Source: a virus | Virus record (IMG/VR): IMGVR_UViG_3300027881_000080 | Coordinates: 1 to 23,542 of that record | DNA: 23,542 nt | Direction: 5' to 3' (one strand) | Shown here: positions 6,225 to 23,143 of the stretch, piece after piece | Layout of the letters: every line of letters starts with the position of its first letter | Position numbering within the stretch: position 1 is the first letter of the stretch | Program-made: the position numbers and the translations under genes | The notes under the pieces: generated by a model | The model's database searches: none | What the model was told of the DNA's origin: nothing | The model's input: only the letters and a program-made list of their open reading frames with translations

Positions 6225-6866
6225 ATGGACCAGATCACCAATAAGGTGAAACTGACAGCTGGACCCAGCAAAGAATATATCAGTGTGGGGGATGCCAAGC
6301 TTCAGCTGAGGCTGGACAACAGCCTGGAAGATTCCATCATCGCCAGACTGATCAGGGCTTCCAGAACCCACACAGAAAAACGCATAGGGCGTTATATCGG
6401 GGAACAGACTTTGCAGTGGAAGCTTCCCTGCTTCCCATCGGGCAGCACCATCTATTTCCCAAACCCACCCCTGACAGAAGTGGTGAAGGTTTCCTATAAG
6501 GATGAAGATGGAAACACCACTGTGGTCTATGACCCAGCTGCTTCCCCAGCTGTGGATCTGGGCCTGTTTTCCATTGAACTGGACACTGAACCAGGCTTCA
6601 TCTTCCTGAACCCAAATGAAACCTGGCCTTTGGTGAATCTGTTTCCAGGTCTGCCTGTCACCTTTGAATTCAAAGCGGGTTTGGATCTGCTTTCACCTGA
6701 ACAGGATGACCTGATTCAGGGGATGATGATGCTGCTGGGCCACTGGTTTGAACACAGGGAAGCTGTCGTGATTGGGTCCATTGCCCAGATGAATGCCCTG
6801 GCATCAGCCCTGGTGCCTTTGGGCTTTGATGACCAGATTTCCCCTTACATCTGGTATTCAGGCTAA
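6225..6866 (+). CDS. Head-tail connector (HK97 gp6 / phiE125 gp8 type)
   Basis: This protein is predicted to form the ring below the portal that extends the neck. The 213-residue sequence has the family pattern: YISVGDAKLQLRLDNSLEDS, then IARLIRASRTHTEKRIGRYI (the helical core), followed by a beta part with YFPNPPLTEVVKVSYKDEDG. The C-terminal part contains MMLLGHWFEHREAV, also typical. It is longer than the short gp6 form and closer to the phiE125 gp8 group. It follows the Lys-rich protein by 3 nt, and its stop overlaps the next start (TAATG). Confidence 0.85.
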   Translation: MDQITNKVKLTAGPSKEYISVGDAKLQLRLDNSLEDSIIARLIRASRTHTEKRIGRYIGEQTLQWKLPCFPSGSTIYFPNPPLTEVVKVSYKDEDGNTTVVYDPAASPAVDLGLFSIELDTEPGFIFLNPNETWPLVNLFPGLPVTFEFKAGLDLLSPEQDDLIQGMMMLLGHWFEHREAVVIGSIAQMNALASALVPLGFDDQISPYIWYSG

Positions 6867-7540
6867 TGGATCAGCCACTGGTCAGTTGTGTCTGCCCGAC
6901 AGCAAACCGGCACAAATACATTCCCCAGCTGCTGGATTCCTTCCTTTCCCAAACCTGGCAGAACAAAGAACTGATCATTCTGGATGATGGGAAGAAACCC
7001 TGCACCAATGAACTGATCCAGGTCCACAGGCAGATTCAATATTTCAAGCTGCCCGAAAAGCTGAACATCCCCAAGAAAAGAAATCTGCTTGCCAAGCTTG
7101 CTAATGGTAAATACATCATTCACTTTGATGATGATGACTGGTCTGCCCCTGGCCGAATTGCTGCCCAGATGAAACACCACCAGCAGTTCAGTGTGGGCAT
7201 TGTGGGCTTTCACAGCATTCTATTCTGGTCTGAAATCACCCAGGAAGTGTGGCGATATTCTGGCACCAAAGGGTATGCGTGTGGAACATCCTTCTGCTAT
7301 CTGAAAAGCTTCTGGAAAAGGCACCCCTTTCCTGAAAACCAGGATCTGGGTTCAGACAATTCTGTGATCTATCCAGCCAGGGCAAACAACCAATCAGCCA
7401 CTTTTGATGGGGGTCAACTGATTGTGGCAAGGATCCATCAGGGTCAATCCAACTTCAAAGATCTAAGGGGCAGAAATTATGCCAAAGTGCAGCTTTCAAG
7501 TTTGCCACCAGCTTTCCCCACCTTTTGCCAGCAAACCTGA
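6866..7540 (+). CDS. GT2-like glycosyltransferase, single domain
   Basis: A 224-residue GT-A fold enzyme predicted to move a sugar from a nucleotide-sugar to an acceptor in the cytoplasm. The start SCVCPTANRHKYIPQLLDSF is the family's nucleotide-binding first strand. RNLLAKLANGKYIIHFDDDDW gives the metal-binding acidic cluster at D88-D91, and GSDN (about 162-165) with H201 in RIHQG may supply later active-site residues. No signal peptide or membrane segment is visible. ATG 6866 overlaps the connector stop (TAATG), so it is co-translated with neck genes. The next glycosyltransferase overlaps its end by 62 nt in the +1 frame. Donor and acceptor are unknown. Confidence 0.87.
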   Translation: MDQPLVSCVCPTANRHKYIPQLLDSFLSQTWQNKELIILDDGKKPCTNELIQVHRQIQYFKLPEKLNIPKKRNLLAKLANGKYIIHFDDDDWSAPGRIAAQMKHHQQFSVGIVGFHSILFWSEITQEVWRYSGTKGYACGTSFCYLKSFWKRHPFPENQDLGSDNSVIYPARANNQSATFDGGQLIVARIHQGQSNFKDLRGRNYAKVQLSSLPPAFPTFCQQT

Positions 7541-8819
7541 TGTGACAGTGGTGGTGCCAGTCAGGAAGGGGGGTGATCCTGCCATCACCCTGAAAAGCCT
7601 GGACAGGCAATCATTCCAAAACTTCAAGATTATCCTGGTGCATGATGACCATCAGATGGGGGCTGCCTATTGCAGGAACAGGGGGTGGGATCTGGCAGAA
7701 ACACCTTTCACCCTATTCAGTGATGATGATGTGGACTGGCACCCACAGGCCCTGGCAAGGCTGGTGGCAGCCCTTCAAAACAATCCTGGGGCACACTTTG
7801 CCTGGGGTTCCTACCTGATGGGTGGGCAAAGGATTGGCAGACCCACAGGGGGGAAACAGGGCTGGGATCTGCGGAGATTACGAAAGGCAAACTACATCAG
7901 CACCATGGCACTGTGGCGAACGGATGACTGCCCAGGCTTTGATGAAGGATTGTCCAGGCACCAGGACTGGGATCTATATCTGCGGTGTGTGGGGCTGGGC
8001 AAGGTGGGCCATTATTCTGGGGATTTATTCAAAACCAGTCTGAAGTCTGGGGATATTAGTTCAGGCGATGGCATCCCCTGGGCTGAAAGCTGTGCCAGGA
8101 TTTCCAGGAAACACACAGCCCCAGCAGTGGATGTGATTATCCCCTGCTATCTGAACAGTGATGACCTGACCATTCTGACCAGCCGGTGTTTGGCAAGCCT
8201 GAAAAAGCACACCCAAAACTTCAGGGTGATCCTGATTGATAATGGTTCGGAAAACTGGCACCAGGTTCAGAAGGAACTGGATGGGCTGAATTATCTGGTG
8301 GTCAGGAACAGGAAGAATCTGGGCTTTGTGAAAGCCATCAATCAGGGGCTTCAGCTGTCAACTGCACCCTTTGTGGTGCTGCTGAATAATGACACCACAG
8401 TGACTGCAAACTGGTTGCTTCATCTGATGGCACCCATGGCAGCAGATGGCAATGTGGGGATCTGTGGACCCAGAACAGATGCAACCAACAGCTGGCAAGG
8501 CAGACAGGGGGATGAAGGCCCAAACTGGATCACACTGAACAAAAAGCAAATGCTGGCATTTTTCTGCATTTTGATGAGAAAAGAATGCCTGGAAGATGTG
8601 GGGGTGCTAGATGAAAGGTTTGGGGTGGGCTTTGGTGATGATGATGACTGGTGCCACAGGTGTCATCAAAAAGGCTGGAAAATGGTGTTTGTCAGGGATT
8701 CCTTTGTCAGGCACCACCACAGAACCACCTTCAAAACTTTGTGGTCAGATGCCCAGATCTATCAAATGCAGAAGAAAGCTATGAAGAAATTAAAAAGGAA
8801 GCACCATGACCACCACTGA
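7479..8819 (+). CDS. Tandem (two-domain) GT2 glycosyltransferase
   Basis: The 446-residue protein holds two GT-A domains. Domain 1 (about 20-200) has VTVVVPVRKGGD, the metal-binding SDDDVD at 81-86 and HQDWDLYLR at 151-159. Domain 2 (about 205-425) resembles rhamnosyltransferase-type GT2 enzymes: VDVIIPCYL, IDNGS near 253, NLGFVKAINQG, LLNNDTTV at 291-298, and an acidic FGDDDDW near 385 followed by RHHH. Such tandem enzymes can add two sugars in sequence. ATG 7479 is supported by AAGGGG 8 nt upstream although it overlaps the previous gene by 62 nt; a GTG at 7542 would start exactly at domain 1. The C-terminal tail is Lys/His-rich. Confidence 0.88.
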   Translation: MPKCSFQVCHQLSPPFASKPDVTVVVPVRKGGDPAITLKSLDRQSFQNFKIILVHDDHQMGAAYCRNRGWDLAETPFTLFSDDDVDWHPQALARLVAALQNNPGAHFAWGSYLMGGQRIGRPTGGKQGWDLRRLRKANYISTMALWRTDDCPGFDEGLSRHQDWDLYLRCVGLGKVGHYSGDLFKTSLKSGDISSGDGIPWAESCARISRKHTAPAVDVIIPCYLNSDDLTILTSRCLASLKKHTQNFRVILIDNGSENWHQVQKELDGLNYLVVRNRKNLGFVKAINQGLQLSTAPFVVLLNNDTTVTANWLLHLMAPMAADGNVGICGPRTDATNSWQGRQGDEGPNWITLNKKQMLAFFCILMRKECLEDVGVLDERFGVGFGDDDDWCHRCHQKGWKMVFVRDSFVRHHHRTTFKTLWSDAQIYQMQKKAMKKLKRKHHDHH

Positions 8820-9363
8820 AAGCATTGATCCTGACCAGCTGGGCCCTGACCACAGACAGACCCTGCTGCACCAAGCCCGATACAAAGCAGCAGCAGCTTT
8901 CATGCCCGATAGTGGCACCATTCTTGATCTGGCCTGTGGCACAGGCTATGGGGCAGTGCTGCTGGCAACCAGGCTGCCTGATTGCCTGGTGGTGGGGGTG
9001 GATCACACCTGGGCTGCCATCCAGCTGGCAAAAAGAACAGCCCTGTGTTGCAAGGGAAATGCTGAATTTCATGAAGCTGACATCACCACCTGGGCACCCA
9101 AGCAAAGGGCTGATGGCCTGGTCTGCCTGGAAACCATTGAACACCTGCCAGATCCCCAGGCTTTTCTGAAACACATCAGCTTCCATCTGAAGCCGGATGC
9201 CCCTGTTTGCCTGTCAGCACCCGTAGACGAAGAACCAGGCGTGAATCCCTGGCACCTGCACCAGTTTGATCATGCTGGGCTGGTAGGATTGTTCAAGGAG
9301 CATTTCAAATTGGAAGCCATTTTTGACCAAATCTGTTATCAGACCATGATAGGGAGAAAATGA
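8806..9363 (+). CDS. SAM-dependent methyltransferase (class I)
   Basis: A 185-residue Rossmann-fold methyltransferase. SAM-binding motif I is ILDLACGTGYG at 39-49, the acidic motif II is VVGVDHT near 62-68, and the later motifs DGLVCLETIEHLPDP and a proline-rich PVDEEPGVNPWHLHQF follow. This resembles Methyltransf_11/23-type small-molecule or sugar methyltransferases more than DNA methyltransferases: no DPPY/NPPY or cytosine-methylase PCQ motif is present. AAAAAGGAAG precedes ATG 8806. It overlaps the tandem glycosyltransferase by 14 nt and the head-closure gene by ATGA. Placement suggests methylation of the sugar made by the two upstream enzymes (inference). Confidence 0.85.
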   Translation: MTTTESIDPDQLGPDHRQTLLHQARYKAAAAFMPDSGTILDLACGTGYGAVLLATRLPDCLVVGVDHTWAAIQLAKRTALCCKGNAEFHEADITTWAPKQRADGLVCLETIEHLPDPQAFLKHISFHLKPDAPVCLSAPVDEEPGVNPWHLHQFDHAGLVGLFKEHFKLEAIFDQICYQTMIGRK

Positions 9364-18500: not shown

Positions 18501-19915
18501 ATCGCGTGAAAGCCATCAGAAGGATTGCCCCACCTGACAGGCAGGGTGCCCAGCTGGAAGATGTGGCCTGGGCTGCCCATAGTTTGGCTGGTCCCTATTT
18601 GAGAGGGAAAGAATTCTTTGGTGTCTTCAAAGATGATAAAGCAGGTGACAGCCAAAACAAGCGCATGATCATTGTCTATTCCAATGATTATGGCAGGAAC
18701 TGGGTGAAGCTGGATGAAACTGGCTTTGCCATCATGTCAGGAACCATTGGTTCCTACAATTCAGTGATGGCTGATGATGACCACCTGCACATCAGCACCC
18801 AGGAAGAAACCACAGGCAGGGTGGCTTATCACAAATTCAGCATGGCAAATCGGGTCTGGGTGACAGTGGATGAAGAAGTGGTGGCTGCCACCATCACAAA
18901 TTCTGATCCAGTCCATGGATATGCTGGGGGGGGGTGGAGTCCACACACCACCCTGACCATCACCAAGCCATCGGGCAGACCAGTGGTTGTGTTTGCTGCT
19001 GATGGGTCTGCCTATGACCCAGCTGATGGCACCTATTTGTTTCAGACAGGCCCTGCTGATGATTACAAATTCAGAAGGATGATGGTTTCCCACAGGGGTG
19101 ATGGGGGAACCTGGACCACAGCCCAAAGGCTGGGTGCTGATGCCCATGGCAGATGCTGTTCCACATCAGATTATGGGGGGGAACTGGTGGCTGGTCAGAA
19201 TGATCATGTGTTTTATTTTTATGCTTCCCTGCCAGGATACGCCACATCCAGCACCCCAGATTATCGGGCAGCAGTTTACACAGCCGGTGGTGCAGTGGGT
19301 GCCCAGCAGACCTACTACATCACCAGCCTGGTCTATTATCCTGCTTATGGGGGAATCTTTGGCAGGATTGGAACCAGTCAGGATGAAGATGGGCAATTCA
19401 GGTTCCATGTCACCTACAAAGCAGGATATGGCAGAGCATACTTTTCTGAATTTCTGGAAAACAAATTGCTGGCTGGTGCCTATGATGCTGGGACCAATAT
19501 GCTGGACAACCAGGCTGAATGGACCACTTACTTTGTGGGCACTGATGGGCCTTTTGATGCCGTTAACGAATCCAGTGGGGCCACTGGCAGAACCCAGGGC
19601 CAGGTGCAGATACTGGACCCTTCTGCCCCTGGTGATTTTTCGGGCAATCCAAACAATGTGGTGTTTTTTGCCTGTTACACGCCCAAGCTTTACCATGCCC
19701 CACTGGGGGGATACAACAAATGTGGACCATCAGATTTCCTGGGCATCCAGACTTCCCAGCAGTGGGCTTTTGAATCGGGTGCCAGAACCTATGTGGCTGC
19801 CTTCTTCAGTGATTTTTATTATGACCCTTATTTCAACCTTTGGGCTTCTGATCAGCTGCCCCTTGAACCAGGCTATGATCTTTCAGCCTTCAAAACTGAA
19901 TTTGATCTTTGGTGA
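15509..19915 (+). CDS. Composite tail-tip/baseplate hub protein with sialidase-like Asp-box domain
   Basis: The 1468-residue protein follows the tape measure (TGATG junction) and seems to merge several tail-tip roles. Residues ~1-400 are beta-rich and carbohydrate-binding-module-like in texture. Residues ~405-513 hold a degenerate ~23-residue repeat with the core SDxLgxxSDA. Residues ~515-1020 resemble a tail hub: SYKGLITNYGRLSRSVEIP, GQITVADTDQYFRELF and IPILFGDCHSR, then a helical/beta part with FNADWFQNKDGKITASI. The C-terminal third contains an Asp box SNDYGRNW at 1058-1065, typical of sialidase/BNR beta-propellers. A run of nine G occurs at 18926-18934. Binding to a host glycan is a reasonable inference; no full sialidase catalytic set is identified. 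Confidence 0.8.
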   Translation: MAYDWAHSISIPCSAGLTSDTTDVTFERTLRSLDDGDYDGATYYLEIQAANFDGAAQDRDVSLVDSGGTAKATITVSSGTGSSGNFTRLRSSSFTPVSGDEEYRLKLEGTDGADELEVKSARWWIVQVAATKGRFEYCLGANDSGTPDNLDTASLFSTQTGSYLPDNNNRLGGFEYKSGAFAGTTVVWEFEATAWYNGASGANAGLLDIDDSDTLVASSEVTVTGDSTHRVVKTTITEAQLTDGHLYEWNAHSNDFLKTMRVFGASVFVTVTGVTQLEIQHFLHGGWSGSAAHDSVDHRVLWDSDEYTGIPTVKYAQVSKDISGTAGNGLELNHYGTNDGPGTTGVTQVTEHAASDTKGFYEETVSLTDSNRYGGGGWRTNNGHAIYGQMLLVSTDGSTPLTLEPADTIEALSDAVITGSYPYDRRNFSDSLAVISDSFIHTLASVLSLTPSDSLGAFSDAIQTQQAAHINQAVSDELGAITDAFAHDLSIRLTLTAADLLGELADNITIESGRWFGSQMVLIVTIWFESVTEKLSNIHINTPTESYKGLITNYGRLSRSVEIPAGLTRVADGQITVADTDQYFRELFATEVPKGKQIEIRMLPVGGKVATSQRVYLGEIESVGLPEGAVTFYFSDKTLAFLEEDIPPLGTLENFPYLPQKEEVFIPILFGDCHSRLLGDRGAIQCKQIDADGKQFVFSRLDVEEVTTVFRKTSTDEEFVIITAGFTVTKTPMTIEGVDYTICWLEFGAAQEAGTQIRVDVKGYPNAADGTASQNLSVNLKSYLNLIAQQPDAVLDLWAFQNLETDFTSLGWLCDGAYTEDMNHRSAISQMVTSFNADWFQNKDGKITASISPPTGAEASFDDTFHLLKETILHRMPGEAINKIRYNFGISPDGWTEKRVWDDATAQSIVGKVIDRTYEYPFIRDIPTAQNVTEDIASYLSLQSYWIDFDLTAPRTVDLLELARLVDITHYGGIGVGGYQNEVFKVGEINFDPNELRYRVKAIRRIAPPDRQGAQLEDVAWAAHSLAGPYLRGKEFFGVFKDDKAGDSQNKRMIIVYSNDYGRNWVKLDETGFAIMSGTIGSYNSVMADDDHLHISTQEETTGRVAYHKFSMANRVWVTVDEEVVAATITNSDPVHGYAGGGWSPHTTLTITKPSGRPVVVFAADGSAYDPADGTYLFQTGPADDYKFRRMMVSHRGDGGTWTTAQRLGADAHGRCCSTSDYGGELVAGQNDHVFYFYASLPGYATSSTPDYRAAVYTAGGAVGAQQTYYITSLVYYPAYGGIFGRIGTSQDEDGQFRFHVTYKAGYGRAYFSEFLENKLLAGAYDAGTNMLDNQAEWTTYFVGTDGPFDAVNESSGATGRTQGQVQILDPSAPGDFSGNPNNVVFFACYTPKLYHAPLGGYNKCGPSDFLGIQTSQQWAFESGARTYVAAFFSDFYYDPYFNLWASDQLPLEPGYDLSAFKTEFDLW
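16721..17047 (+). repeat. Degenerate protein repeat (~23 aa, about 4.5 units) in the tail-tip gene
   Basis: Units begin at PADTIEALSDAV, FSDSLAVISDSF, PSDSLGAFSDAI, VSDELGAITDAF and AADLLGELADNI. Each has an acidic-x-Leu then Ser/Thr-Asp pair spaced five to six residues apart. The DNA is diverged, so the repeats are old. They link the N-terminal beta domains to the hub region and could form a stalk. Confidence 0.7.
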
Positions 19916-19940
19916 TGACTAACACAAAAGGAACAACCCA

Positions 19941-20441
19941 ATGAAACCACAGGAAGTTTTTGACGTTATGCAACCAGTCAGGGGTGTGATCACCTTATAT
20001 TTGAAGGATGCCCTGCCTGGTTCACCCACCTATGGTCAGGTGATCAAGACCATTGACACAAAGAACAGCCCCACCAGGGGTGGGGTGGCCTGGTTGTGTC
20101 AGCAAATGCTATCGGGTGAAGCCATCAGCAGCCAGGTGCTGGAACAGCTGGCATTGGGGACTGATACCACAGCACCCACCACTTCAGACAGTGCCCTGGG
20201 CAGTGAAGTGGTCCGAAAAGCAGTGGGAACATGGGACACTGCTGGATTGACAGCTGCTGTGCCTTACTTTGTGGCGCAGGTAGAATTCGGAACAGGTGAA
20301 GGGAATGGAACCCTGGCTGAAGTTGGACTATTCAACAGTTCAGCGGGTGGAACCATGCTGGTGCATGGAACCTTTGGCACTTTTGCAAAGGCCACATCTA
20401 ACACCCTGGGAGTCAGCTACACTGTTTCTCACGCTGTGTAA
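19941..20441 (+). CDS. Tail fibre-like protein
   Basis: A 166-residue, beta-rich protein. The segment LALGTDTTAPTTSDSALGSEVVRKAV followed by FVAQVEFGTGEGNGTLAEVGLFNSSAGGTMLVHG is a pattern I recognise from small tail-associated or fibre proteins of many phages and prophages. It probably sits at the tail tip or forms part of the receptor-binding apparatus; the exact place is unknown. ATG 19941 has AAAAGGAAC upstream within an A/C-rich 25-nt gap. The stop codon lies in the loop of a perfect 8-bp hairpin, suggesting 3'-end control. It is followed by the glycosyltransferase-methyltransferase fusion. Confidence 0.7.
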   Translation: MKPQEVFDVMQPVRGVITLYLKDALPGSPTYGQVIKTIDTKNSPTRGGVAWLCQQMLSGEAISSQVLEQLALGTDTTAPTTSDSALGSEVVRKAVGTWDTAGLTAAVPYFVAQVEFGTGEGNGTLAEVGLFNSSAGGTMLVHGTFGTFAKATSNTLGVSYTVSHAV

Positions 20442-20451
20442 AAACACAGCG
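20432..20451 (+). other. Perfect 8-bp hairpin enclosing the stop codon of the fibre-like gene
   Basis: CGCTGTGT at 20432-20439 pairs exactly with ACACAGCG at 20444-20451 around an AAAA loop. The TAA stop at 20439-20441 lies in the stem-loop top, so a terminating ribosome would melt it. No U-tract follows. A CA-rich leader begins at its last base, as after the tail tube hairpin. Confidence 0.7.
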
Positions 20452-20482
20452 ACAAAACAACACACACACACAGGGGAAGACA
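20451..20482 (+). promoter_or_regulatory. CA-rich leader with ribosome-binding site, copy 2
   Basis: The leader reads GACAAAA, then CAACACACACACACA, then GGGGAAGAC, and precedes ATG 20486. It matches the leader at 10559-10582 apart from one extra A, two extra CA units and two extra G. GGGGA at 20473-20477 is a strong Shine-Dalgarno sequence 8 nt from the start. Confidence 0.65.
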
Positions 20483-20485
20483 GAC

Positions 20486-21739
20486 ATGCAGATTCAGGAC
20501 AAACTAACAAAGGGGATAATGATGGCAGTGCCCACCCTGGGCAGACCTATTCCACCTTCCATGATGTTTTGTATGGCAAGCATGGTGCCACCGATCAACT
20601 ACCATGTGGTTTCATCCATGATCTGGGGCCAGGAAGTGGCTGATGCCAGAAATGGAATTGTCAAAGCAGCTATGGACCAGGGGAAAGAATATGTGATGCT
20701 GGTGGGGGATGATACAGAACCACCACCCCACACTGTGAAGCAACTGATTTACAGAATGGAACACAACCCCAAGGCTGGGGTGATCGGTGGTGTCTACTGT
20801 TCCAAATCCCACCCACCTGCACCCCTGGTGTTCAGGGGCAATGGGGGGGGCAGCTTCTGGAAGTGGAAGGCTGGTGAATTTTTCCAGGTCACAGGCATTG
20901 GGATGGACTGCACCCTGATCAGAACAGCTGTGTTCAAAGACCTATCTGAACCCTATTTCAAAACAGTCAGGGAAGATCAGTTCCTGGAAGGCATCCCCAT
21001 GGCTGAAGCATGGACTGAAGATTTGTGGTTCTGCGAAAAGCTGGCTGAAGAAACTGATTGGGAAGTCTGGTGTGACAGCATGATTATGGCGAAACACTGG
21101 CAGTGGAATGGGGGATTCAACTGGGAATATTTTACTTTGCGCCAGGACAGCATCCCCTTCCTGGCTGAACCCCAGAAGAAGAAACAGAAGCAGATCCTGG
21201 ATCTGGGATGTGGGCCACTGCACCATGATTTCAAAGGCGAAGGAATGGTCACAACTGTGGACATCAGGGAAGAGTGCAGCCCAGACAAACGGGCAGATTT
21301 AAGGCAGTTGCCCTTCCCACCAGACTGCTTTGATGTGGTGTTCAGCAGCCACACCCTGGAACACTTCCCCAGGTGTGAAGTGAAAGAAGTGGCAAAGGAA
21401 TGGATCAGGGTGCTGAAGCCTGGTGGGGAAATCAGATTGGTGATTCCTGATCTGGAATGGGCAGCCCGACAGATCCAGGAAGGGATTGTGTCTGATGACG
21501 TATTGAATGTGCTTTATGGCAGCCAGGAATATGTCCAGAACTTTCACCAGGTGGGCTTCACAGCAAACACCTTGACTAAATTGTTAAAGGGTCTGGCAAT
21601 TTCGGGAATAGAAACAGCACACCAGGGCTATAACATTCTGCTGACAGGGAAGAAAAGGAAACCCAGAAAGAAGGCCAATGCCATCAGCAATACTAAAAGA
21701 AAATCTGCTGGAAGCAGCAAGCCTGACAAGCAGCACTGA
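20486..21739 (+). CDS. Glycosyltransferase-methyltransferase fusion protein
   Basis: The 417-residue protein joins two enzymes. The GT-A part (about 8-225) has MAVPTLGRPIPP, a central VADARNGIVKAAMD helix, VMLVGDDTEPPP with metal-binding D75/D76, WTEDLWFCEKL with likely catalytic E178/D179, and H204. This is a phage-frequent glycosyltransferase type. The class I methyltransferase part (about 235-395) has ILDLGCG at 237-243, LPFPPDCFDVVFSSHTLEHF and VLKPGGEIRLVIPD, a Methyltransf_11 pattern. A Lys-rich tail follows (KKRKPRKKAN). A single polypeptide adding and then methylating a sugar is the simplest reading. Its place between fibre-like and discoidin-like genes suggests a tail-tip target (inference). 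Confidence 0.87.
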   Translation: MQIQDKLTKGIMMAVPTLGRPIPPSMMFCMASMVPPINYHVVSSMIWGQEVADARNGIVKAAMDQGKEYVMLVGDDTEPPPHTVKQLIYRMEHNPKAGVIGGVYCSKSHPPAPLVFRGNGGGSFWKWKAGEFFQVTGIGMDCTLIRTAVFKDLSEPYFKTVREDQFLEGIPMAEAWTEDLWFCEKLAEETDWEVWCDSMIMAKHWQWNGGFNWEYFTLRQDSIPFLAEPQKKKQKQILDLGCGPLHHDFKGEGMVTTVDIREECSPDKRADLRQLPFPPDCFDVVFSSHTLEHFPRCEVKEVAKEWIRVLKPGGEIRLVIPDLEWAARQIQEGIVSDDVLNVLYGSQEYVQNFHQVGFTANTLTKLLKGLAISGIETAHQGYNILLTGKKRKPRKKANAISNTKRKSAGSSKPDKQH

Positions 21740-22439
21740 AGACACTGCCTTTACACTGTCCAATCTGTTTGATGGCATTGCTGCCAGCAGGTTTGCCTTC
21801 ACAGTCACCACAGGGGGCTGGATTGAAGTGGACAATGGCAGTGCCAAAGCCTTTGACACCCTGCACTTTGTCAATCACAACCTTGATTCTGGGGTGGACA
21901 TTGATGTGTTTGCAGGTGCCACCCCAAACCCAGGCACACCCATTGCCAGCAATATTCCCTGGAGGGAATTTGACATCTGGAAGGATCTTGGCACCCAGTC
22001 TGCCCGATATGTCAGGGTGGTGTTCAGTGAATCCAACAGTGACAACACTGCCCTGGGGGAACTAAGGCTGGGCACCAGGGTGGAATTGCCACAGGCCCAC
22101 AGATTTGGCAAGGTTCCTGGGAAAACCAACAGGGATATATTCCATGAAACCCAGGCAGATGTGGCCTGGGTCTATCATGTTTCATCCAGGGAAATCAGGG
22201 AACTGATGTGGCGAATCCTGGAAACTGATCTGGCAAAGTTTGAAGCACTATTTGATGATGTTCTAGCGCGAACGATTCCATTCACTTTCATCATGGACAC
22301 CACCACAGTTGATGTGATGCTGGTCAGGTTCCTGGAAGCTGCCTACAGGCCCAAGGAACTGAATGAACCCATGGAAATCCCAGGCTATGATGTGGAATTC
22401 AAAGTGAAGGAAGAATCACGGGGTGTACTGCTTGGTTGA
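21678..22439 (+). CDS. Minor tail protein with discoidin (F5/8 type C)-like domain
   Basis: A 253-residue protein. The first ~135 residues look like a discoidin-like beta-sandwich: LSNLFDGIAASRF, GGWIEVDNGSAKAFDTLHFVNHNLDSG, and SARYVRVVFSESN before LGELRLG. Such domains often bind carbohydrate. The C-terminal half (FGKVPGKTNRDIFHETQADV and onward) is a separate, unrecognised domain. ATG 21678 overlaps the previous gene by 62 nt in the +1 frame. AAGG is only 3 nt upstream of it, so initiation may depend on coupling. Likely a tail-tip component; function uncertain. Confidence 0.7.
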   Translation: MPSAILKENLLEAASLTSSTEDTAFTLSNLFDGIAASRFAFTVTTGGWIEVDNGSAKAFDTLHFVNHNLDSGVDIDVFAGATPNPGTPIASNIPWREFDIWKDLGTQSARYVRVVFSESNSDNTALGELRLGTRVELPQAHRFGKVPGKTNRDIFHETQADVAWVYHVSSREIRELMWRILETDLAKFEALFDDVLARTIPFTFIMDTTTVDVMLVRFLEAAYRPKELNEPMEIPGYDVEFKVKEESRGVLLG

Positions 22440-22740
22440 GCCTGCAAGAAATAACCTGTCTCTGGAATTGAAGTCCTGGTTCTACGGCCTGGTGTCTTGT
22501 GCATCCCTCATTTGGAGAACGGTGGCCGTGGTATCTCTGGCTTTTGCCGGATGGGTGGCAGTCTCCATTCTGCAAATGCAGAAGGACATTGCTACCATCC
22601 AGGCGCAAACCCCGCTGAATGTGATATTGCTGGCTGAACGATTCAAACGTCTGGAACAGAAACTGGACAGCATGACAGTCCAGCAAGTCAGGGTGCAGAA
22701 ACTGCTCGAAGAGCATATGGCTAAACATGAATCCTACTGA
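22423..22740 (+). CDS. Membrane protein with coiled coil, lysis-associated
   Basis: A 105-residue protein starting at GTG 22423, with GGAAG 9 nt upstream and a 17-nt overlap with the previous gene. Residues ~32-51 form a single hydrophobic membrane segment (VAVVSLAFAGWVAVSIL). Residues ~52-100 are an amphipathic, heptad-like helix (LAERFKRLEQKLDSM, VQKLLEEHM). It directly precedes and overlaps the endolysin gene, so a role in lysis (holin, antiholin or membrane partner) is likely, but the layout alone does not choose between them. Confidence 0.65.
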   Translation: MYCLVEPARNNLSLELKSWFYGLVSCASLIWRTVAVVSLAFAGWVAVSILQMQKDIATIQAQTPLNVILLAERFKRLEQKLDSMTVQQVRVQKLLEEHMAKHESY

Positions 22741-23143
22741 ACTGCTCATCAAGCATGAAGGGTTCCGGCAATTCCCCTACAAAGACACCAGAGGAATTTT
22801 GACCGTGGGCATCGGCAGGAACCTGGAAACGGTGGGCATCAGGGAAAAGGAAGCCAGGTTCCTGCTGGGTGAAGATTTGAGAATCACAGAAGATCTACTG
22901 AAGGCAAAGCTGTCACCAGGACAATGGGCCAGGTGGGATGATGTCAGGAAAGCAGTGCTTCTAAATATGGCATTCAACCTGGGGGTGGCTGGGCTGTTCA
23001 GCTTTGAGAAGATGATTCTGGCTTTGCAGACAGACAACTGGGACAGGGCTGCCACTGAAATGCTTGACAGCCTTTGGGCCAAACAGGTGGGCAATCGAGC
23101 GGTGGAACTGTCTGAAATGATGAAGAAGGGAGACTGGATCTGA
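22727..23143 (+). CDS. Endolysin, lysozyme GH24 (T4 type)
   Basis: This muramidase cuts the glycan backbone of peptidoglycan at the end of infection. The catalytic triad is visible in exactly the T4 lysozyme numbering: E11 in KHEGFR, D20 in YKDTRG and T26 in LTVGIGR. Helical C-terminal lobe features follow (VRKAVLLNMAFNLGVAGLFSF). At 138 residues it is shorter than T4 lysozyme (164). No signal peptide or SAR segment is visible at the N-terminus, so export would need a holin. The start overlaps the upstream membrane gene by 14 nt and the stop shares a base with the next ATG. Confidence 0.93.
   Translation: MNPTELLIKHEGFRQFPYKDTRGILTVGIGRNLETVGIREKEARFLLGEDLRITEDLLKAKLSPGQWARWDDVRKAVLLNMAFNLGVAGLFSFEKMILALQTDNWDRAATEMLDSLWAKQVGNRAVELSEMMKKGDWI

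What the first reader, a model, noticed from the sequence alone, without database searches (positions are those of the whole stretch)
20486..21739. Single polypeptide fusing a phage GT-A glycosyltransferase to a methyltransferase
Residues 8-225 carry glycosyltransferase motifs (D75/D76, E178/D179, H204) and 237-395 a complete methyltransferase with ILDLGCG. The combination hints at a sugar that is added and then capped by methylation, parallel to the separate enzymes at 6866-9363. It lies between two likely tail-tip genes, suggesting modification of the receptor-binding apparatus.
Basis: partly seen in the sequence, partly recalled or inferred. Interest (0 to 1): 0.68.

Follow-up and report, generated by a model that had tools for sequence, protein, structure and literature searches.

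The report
Phage glycosyltransferase–methyltransferase fusion enzyme
An uncultured tailed phage makes one protein joining a sugar-attaching enzyme to a methyl-capping enzyme; the fusion is conserved in dozens of uncultured phages, nearly always near one tail-fibre-like gene, so it probably decorates the virus particle with capped sugars, although its true target is untested.

Summary
Window 20486-21739 is one intact 417-aa ORF: a GT-A glycosyltransferase domain (residues ~9-214) plus a class I SAM methyltransferase domain (~232-393), both modelled confidently (pLDDT 88.6) with intact motifs. It is not an artefact: the same fusion recurs in about 25 other contigs (IMG/VR, one MAG), with D76, E178, D179, H204 and methyltransferase motif I invariant. 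About 19 further contigs keep the glycosyltransferase but carry a decayed methyltransferase remnant; one separate clade is glycosyltransferase only. The strongest new result is linkage. All fused contigs but one (cut off at its contig end) also carry a homolog of the upstream gene 19941-20441, a tail-fibre/baseplate-arm fold; 56 of 63 contigs with that gene carry the enzyme, usually just downstream. Glycosyltransferase-only contigs lack it. Relatives of the window phage (L075, L076) keep the tail gene without the enzyme, so the enzyme is optional. Best explanation: a bifunctional enzyme that adds a sugar to a virion tail protein and then methylates it, as demonstrated for chlorovirus A064R and reported for mycobacteriophage virion proteins with separate enzymes. 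Donor, acceptor and methylation site are unknown. New variant of a known kind.

The parts
20486..21739 (+). GT-MT fusion gene, 417 aa (P0001)
   Evidence: ORF; Pfam; model; conserved fusion
20510..21127 (+). GT-A glycosyltransferase domain, residues 9-214
   Evidence: Glycos_transf_2; STIV A197 2c0n Z 20.4; phrog_1574
20708..20713 (+). D75-D76, DxD-type metal/donor motif of the GT
   Evidence: D76 invariant in 36 members; sequence
21017..21022 (+). E178-D179 'ED' motif (TEDLxF) of the GT; one homolog carries an intein in this motif
   Evidence: invariant in fused set; intein in L011
21095..21097 (+). H204, conserved His of the GT
   Evidence: invariant in 36 members
21179..21664 (+). Class I SAM methyltransferase domain, residues 232-393
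   Evidence: Methyltransf_11; structural matches; A5 alignment
21197..21214 (+). Motif I LDLGCG (residues 238-243), SAM-binding loop; intact here, lost in about 19 related contigs
21647..21736 (+). Basic C-terminal tail (12 K/R, 1 D/E in 30 residues), low model confidence; its end overlaps the start of the next gene
19941..20441 (+). Tail-fibre / baseplate-arm-fold protein ('fib', 166 aa), linked partner gene and candidate acceptor
   Evidence: linkage; fold; phrog_5417, phrog_4176 tail fiber
21678..22439 (+). Downstream gene, 253 aa, weak discoidin-like hit; overlaps the fusion gene by 62 nt; its homolog follows fib directly in L075
6866..7540 (+). Separate GT2 glycosyltransferase in the head-tail connector region
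   Evidence: Pfam Glycos_transf_2 E 7.5e-21
7479..8819 (+). Second separate GT with two Glycos_transf_2 stretches
   Evidence: Pfam E 2.2e-28
8806..9363 (+). Separate class I methyltransferase
   Evidence: Pfam Methyltransf_31 E 2.1e-15

Best explanation
The gene encodes a cytosolic bifunctional late enzyme. The N-terminal GT-A domain transfers a sugar from a nucleotide-sugar to a virion tail protein, most likely the adjacent tail-fibre/baseplate-arm-fold protein or a structure it belongs to. The C-terminal class I SAM methyltransferase then methylates that sugar, capping or altering it. Shown: the fusion, both folds, intact motifs, conservation, linkage to the tail gene, no obvious transmembrane segment. 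Inferred: enzymatic activity, protein acceptor, order of steps, and a benefit such as changed adsorption or shielding. Glycosylation appears to be the core function and methylation an optional extra, because the GT is always kept while the MT decays in several lineages.
For: GT-A and MT folds and intact motifs. Fusion conserved over divergent homologs (about 41-49% identity). Linkage: fib found in all fused contigs but one truncated one; 56 of 63 fib contigs carry the enzyme family; the 16 GT-only contigs lack fib. fib-to-enzyme gap of 44 nt or less in 12 contigs, including a 4-nt overlap. fib has a tail structural fold (HFTV1 tail Z 11.2; A511 gp105 and phi812 arm Z about 9). No promoter-like site in 19700-23000. 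Highest 19-residue hydropathy mean 1.13, so no obvious membrane segment. Purifying selection on both domains where dS is measurable (L089/L130: omega 0.13 GT, 0.12 MT). Intein insertions at two different sites in the conserved GT core of homologs, as expected of a functionally important site. Precedents: PBCV-1 A064R, a single GT-GT-MT polypeptide shown in vitro to add rhamnose and 2-O-methylate it in capsid glycan synthesis (PMC9614988); cluster O mycobacteriophages with an O-methyltransferase gene next to three GT genes, enzymes stated to modify capsid and tail tube proteins (PMC11600133).
Against: No donor, acceptor or activity was tested. Relatives L075 and L076 (56-60% identical fib, also sharing the tip protein) lack the enzyme in the contigs held, so fib functions without it. 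Many fused contigs belong to phages that also share other structural genes, so part of the linkage is common descent. In a minority of contigs fib and enzyme are 1.8-5.6 kb apart. About 19 related contigs carry a degenerate MT, so methylation is not general in the family.
Confidence: 0.55

Rival explanations
1. It modifies a host surface glycan (receptor alteration or superinfection exclusion), with the methyl group capping a host polysaccharide.
For: Glycos_transf_2 is common in phage seroconversion enzymes, and GtrB-like PHROGs match the separate GTs at 6866-8819. Enzymes of glycan pathways often carry methyltransferases (general knowledge).
Against: No obvious transmembrane segment and no flippase or Gtr partner recognised among the window ORFs (by inspection). 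It lies inside the tail gene block and travels with a tail structural gene. The best structural matches are a viral GT and protein-glycosylating enzymes such as COLGALT1 rather than GtrB.
Confidence: 0.2
2. It glycosylates and methylates modified bases in phage DNA.
For: Phage DNA glycosyltransferases exist; a separate GT upstream in L130 weakly matches beta-glucosyl-HMC-alpha-glucosyltransferase, phrog_842, E 0.0019. The C-terminal tail is basic in this and some homologs.
Against: No base-hydroxylating gene was recognised near it, though the window is only a 23.5-kb fragment. It sits in the late structural block beside a tail protein. The basic tail is absent in many homologs.
Confidence: 0.07
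3. The two domains are independent enzymes joined by chance and do not act on the same product.
For: The MT domain is dispensable: degenerate in about 19 contigs, absent in one clade.
Against: GT and MT genes are recurrently paired in several forms: fused GT-MT, overlapping genes (L005, L008), MT-GT-MT neighbours (L004), and an MT-GT fusion of a second pair in L115/L123.
Confidence: 0.13

Closest known systems
Chlorovirus PBCV-1 A064R (PMC9614988)
   Same: One viral polypeptide with GT domains and a C-terminal class I SAM methyltransferase; adds a sugar and methylates it; acts on a virion (capsid) glycan; shown in vitro.
   Different: A064R has two GT domains plus MT, is encoded by an algal virus and acts on the N-glycan of the major capsid protein; the present enzyme has one GT, is in a tailed phage and is linked to a tail gene. 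Homology was not tested directly.
Cluster O/F mycobacteriophage virion glycosylation loci (PMC11600133, PMC12363180, citing Freeman et al. 2023)
   Same: Phage-encoded GTs, in cluster O with a neighbouring O-methyltransferase gene, modify capsid and tail tube proteins.
   Different: Separate genes, not a fusion; targets are capsid and tail tube rather than a tail-fibre-fold protein.
STIV A197 glycosyltransferase (PDB 2c0n)
   Same: Closest solved fold of the GT domain (Z 20.4, rmsd 2.4 A, 174 residues); viral stand-alone GT-A enzyme.
   Different: 15% identity; no methyltransferase.
PHROG 1574 (unknown function)
   Same: Matches the GT domain here (E 1.4e-6) and the upstream separate GT of L130 (E 1.1e-11).
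   Different: A 240-position family of phage proteins with no assigned function and no methyltransferase part.

Membership tests
GT-A glycosyltransferase of GT2-like type (Pfam Glycos_transf_2) | Sequence match above the curated cut-off | tested here: met
   25.5 bits against cut-off 23.3, residues 48-108; 23 of 36 members match at E<=1e-3
GT-A glycosyltransferase of GT2-like type (Pfam Glycos_transf_2) | GT-A fold | tested here: met
   STIV A197 Z 20.4; COLGALT1 Z 15.9
GT-A glycosyltransferase of GT2-like type (Pfam Glycos_transf_2) | DxD-type metal motif and downstream acidic catalytic residue | tested here: met
   D75/D76, E178/D179, H204; D76, D179 and H204 invariant in 36 members. Geometry in the model was not measured (coordinates not available)
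GT-A glycosyltransferase of GT2-like type (Pfam Glycos_transf_2) | Transfer of a sugar from a nucleotide-sugar | not testable with these tools
   No biochemistry
Class I SAM-dependent methyltransferase (Methyltransf_11) | Sequence match above the curated cut-off | tested here: met
   48.8 bits against 21.2
Class I SAM-dependent methyltransferase (Methyltransf_11) | Rossmann-like fold and motif I (GxG) with acidic residue after beta-2 | tested here: met
   D239, G241, G243 and D259 invariant in fused homologs; Z about 15-16 to SAM methyltransferases
Class I SAM-dependent methyltransferase (Methyltransf_11) | Methylates a sugar hydroxyl | not testable with these tools
   Substrate cannot be read from sequence
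Viral bifunctional GT-MT acting on a virion glycan (A064R-like) | GT and MT domains in one polypeptide | tested here: met
Viral bifunctional GT-MT acting on a virion glycan (A064R-like) | Virion protein carries the methylated sugar | not testable with these tools
   Only genetic linkage to a tail-fold gene
Viral bifunctional GT-MT acting on a virion glycan (A064R-like) | Sequence homology to A064R itself | not tested
   A064R was not compared directly; similarity of kind, not of membership

The most novel reading that the evidence does not exclude
The tail-fibre-fold protein (19941-20441) and the GT-MT fusion form a portable substrate-plus-modifier cassette: the phage acquires a tail protein together with its own dedicated glycosylating and methylating enzyme, giving the tail a phage-made capped glycan. 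The MT half is repeatedly inactivated as the glycan is diversified.
Probability: 0.3. Interest if true: 0.75.

Novelty: new variant of a known kind. Interest (0 to 1): 0.52.

Why it matters
Among the papers found here, phage virion glycosylation is documented in mycobacteriophages. A whole family of GT-MT fusions, with no match covering 80% of the query among 50,697 deposited phage records, points to methyl-capped glycans on tail structures of uncultured tailed phages. It names a specific, testable enzyme-acceptor pair. Repeated decay of the MT half and two inteins in the GT core give a natural record of which activity is essential.

Tried and rejected
Frameshift or assembly artefact: rejected (same fusion in many contigs; even composition). 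Independent internal methyltransferase gene: no usable ATG start before motif I. Close homologs in deposited phages: none covering both domains, and fib has none at E<=1e-3. Finding a host: the first bacterial genome scan found nothing; the second found one phage-like MAG contig with no informative name. Conserved basic tail as a functional element: rejected as general, since many homologs lack it. 'Unrelated phages share only the pair' was too strong: many fused contigs share other structural genes with each other; the window phage itself shares little else with them. A remnant of the enzyme in the empty site of L075: none found. dS is saturated for most pairs, so omega is informative only for some. 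Full-text searches turned up no paper whose title or abstract describes a phage GT-MT fusion, though the lists were only skimmed.

Full report
WHAT IS THERE. Window 20486-21739 is a single 417-aa ORF. Pfam places Glycos_transf_2 at residues 48-108 (25.5 bits, cut-off 23.3) and Methyltransf_11 at 239-316 (48.8 bits, cut-off 21.2). The AlphaFold model built from 36 homologs has mean pLDDT 88.6. Against solved structures the N-terminal part matches STIV A197, a viral GT-A enzyme (Z 20.4, rmsd 2.4 A, 174 residues), then the LH3 domain at 293-536, mimivirus R699 and COLGALT1; the C-terminal part matches class I SAM methyltransferases at Z about 15-16. The window is itself a whole 23.5-kb virus record of a siphophage-like virus: P27 small terminase, HK97 portal and capsid, head-tail connector, head closure, TP901 tape measure.

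IS THE FUSION REAL? Yes. With the window protein and one stand-alone relative as a profile, viral contigs gave several loci aligning over both domains, and a wider GT profile gave 64 loci. Fifteen fused proteins (the window's included) align end to end, the others at 41-49% identity to the window protein, with D76, E178, D179, H204, D239, G241, G243, D259, S288, H289, E292 and H293 invariant. Classified by contig, near-duplicate contigs not removed: 25 contigs with fib and an intact fusion (including the window and one MAG contig), one further intact fusion truncated at its contig end (L011), 19 with GT plus degenerate MT remnant, 9 partial, one apparently split, 16 GT-only. Over all 36 aligned members, D76, D179 and H204 stay invariant: the GT is always kept, the MT is not. 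On a maximum-likelihood tree of the GT domain, GT-only members form one group (support 99/99), while the degenerate state needs five changes on the best tree and at least two by well-supported branches. Remnants still show omega below 1 in the measurable pairs (0.09-0.34), against 0.02-0.09 for their GT halves, so they may retain a structural role.

LINKAGE TO A TAIL GENE. Among window genes, the only one apart from the fusion with homologs in the fused loci first found was the upstream neighbour 19941-20441 ('fib'). The reverse search with a fib profile gave 60 loci. Combined, 54 of 63 contigs with fib carried the enzyme family in the stretch held, and whole-contig searches added two more: 56 of 63. 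Of the seven others, three (L088, L097, L129) end at or just after fib; four (L075, L076, L113, L117) lack it. The 16 GT-only contigs lack fib. In family clustering fib occurs in 48 of 49 fused contigs and 1 of 17 GT-only ones (the apparently split L094), more than any other gene outside the GT/MT cluster, the next being 40 and 31. The gap from fib to the enzyme is 44 nt or less in 12 of 51 contigs and 622 nt or less in 42, with a 4-nt overlap in L035. The caveat is descent: many of these contigs share other structural genes, so they are not all independent, and the fib profile was built from enzyme-linked copies. The window phage shares almost nothing else with the fused contigs apart from weak capsid and tip hits, which suggests transfer of the pair between lineages. 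The MAG contig L130 carries portal/head-tail adaptor and major head protein genes followed by separate GT, separate MT, fib and fusion.

WHAT FIB IS. Modelled at pLDDT 84, fib matches tail parts: Haloferax tailed virus 1 tail (Z 11.2), Listeria phage A511 gp105 and staphylococcal phage phi812 baseplate/arm (Z about 9), phage GP4 fiber I (Z 6.4). All 26 aligned members match phrog_5417 and 24 match phrog_4176, a tail fiber family.

AN EMPTY SITE. L075 and L076 are relatives of the window phage by tape measure, tip protein and fib (56% and 60%); in L075 fib is followed by the homolog of window 21678-22439. Neither held contig has the enzyme or any PF00535 gene. The gene is therefore an optional addition between fib and the next gene. 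The L075 homolog supports the start at 21678, so the last 62 nt of the enzyme gene overlap the next gene, which may explain its extended basic end.

HOW IT LIKELY WORKS. The protein has no obvious membrane segment, sits in the late tail block, and accompanies a tail structural protein. The simplest reading is a cytosolic enzyme that glycosylates a tail protein during virion assembly and methylates the sugar. GT and MT pair in several other arrangements: overlapping MT and GT genes in L005 and L008, MT-GT-MT in L004, and a reversed MT-GT fusion in L115/L123, which argues for joint action. The biochemically shown precedent is chlorovirus A064R (PMC9614988); cluster O mycobacteriophages have an O-methyltransferase gene beside virion GT genes (PMC11600133; also PMC12363180). 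Shown: architecture, fold, conservation, linkage. Inferred: activity, acceptor, order, benefit.

VERDICT. The fusion is a new variant of a known kind (viral GT plus MT for virion glycans). No deposited phage among 50,697 records has a match covering 80% of the query, although predicted structures of uncultured Caudovirales proteins include ones whose alignment spans both domains.

Noticed in passing
L011 2-2440: The homologous fusion is interrupted by an intein (Intein_splicing just below cut-off, LAGLIDADG_3 above) inserted in the GT motif TEDLYF|C.
   Followed up: yes
L135 19-2286 (same record as L115): A second intein-like insertion with a LAGLIDADG_3 domain at a different site of the GT domain (PWFK|TVDD).
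   Followed up: yes
L013, L014, L016, L018, L020, L021, L029, L031, L034, L038 and others: Methyltransferase half decayed to a 70-115 aa remnant without the SAM loop but still under purifying selection; possible pseudoenzyme or structural role.
   Followed up: partly
L115 2823-4043 (and L123): A second, reverse-order MT-GT fusion (406 aa) upstream of the fib gene, where other phages have separate GT and MT genes.
   Followed up: partly
L008 3228-4486, L013 1557-2790, L130 4179-5678 and others: Many of these phages carry a further GT gene followed by an MT gene (often overlapping) upstream of fib, so two glycan-modifying sets per phage.
   Followed up: partly
6866-9363: Three glycan-type genes (GT, tandem-domain GT, MT) sit between the head-tail connector and head closure genes of the window phage.
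   Followed up: partly
L113 6525-7439, L117 8100-8981: Two fib-carrying contigs without the fusion encode a related ~300-aa protein that by eye resembles a GT-B heptosyltransferase-like enzyme; not tested.
   Followed up: no
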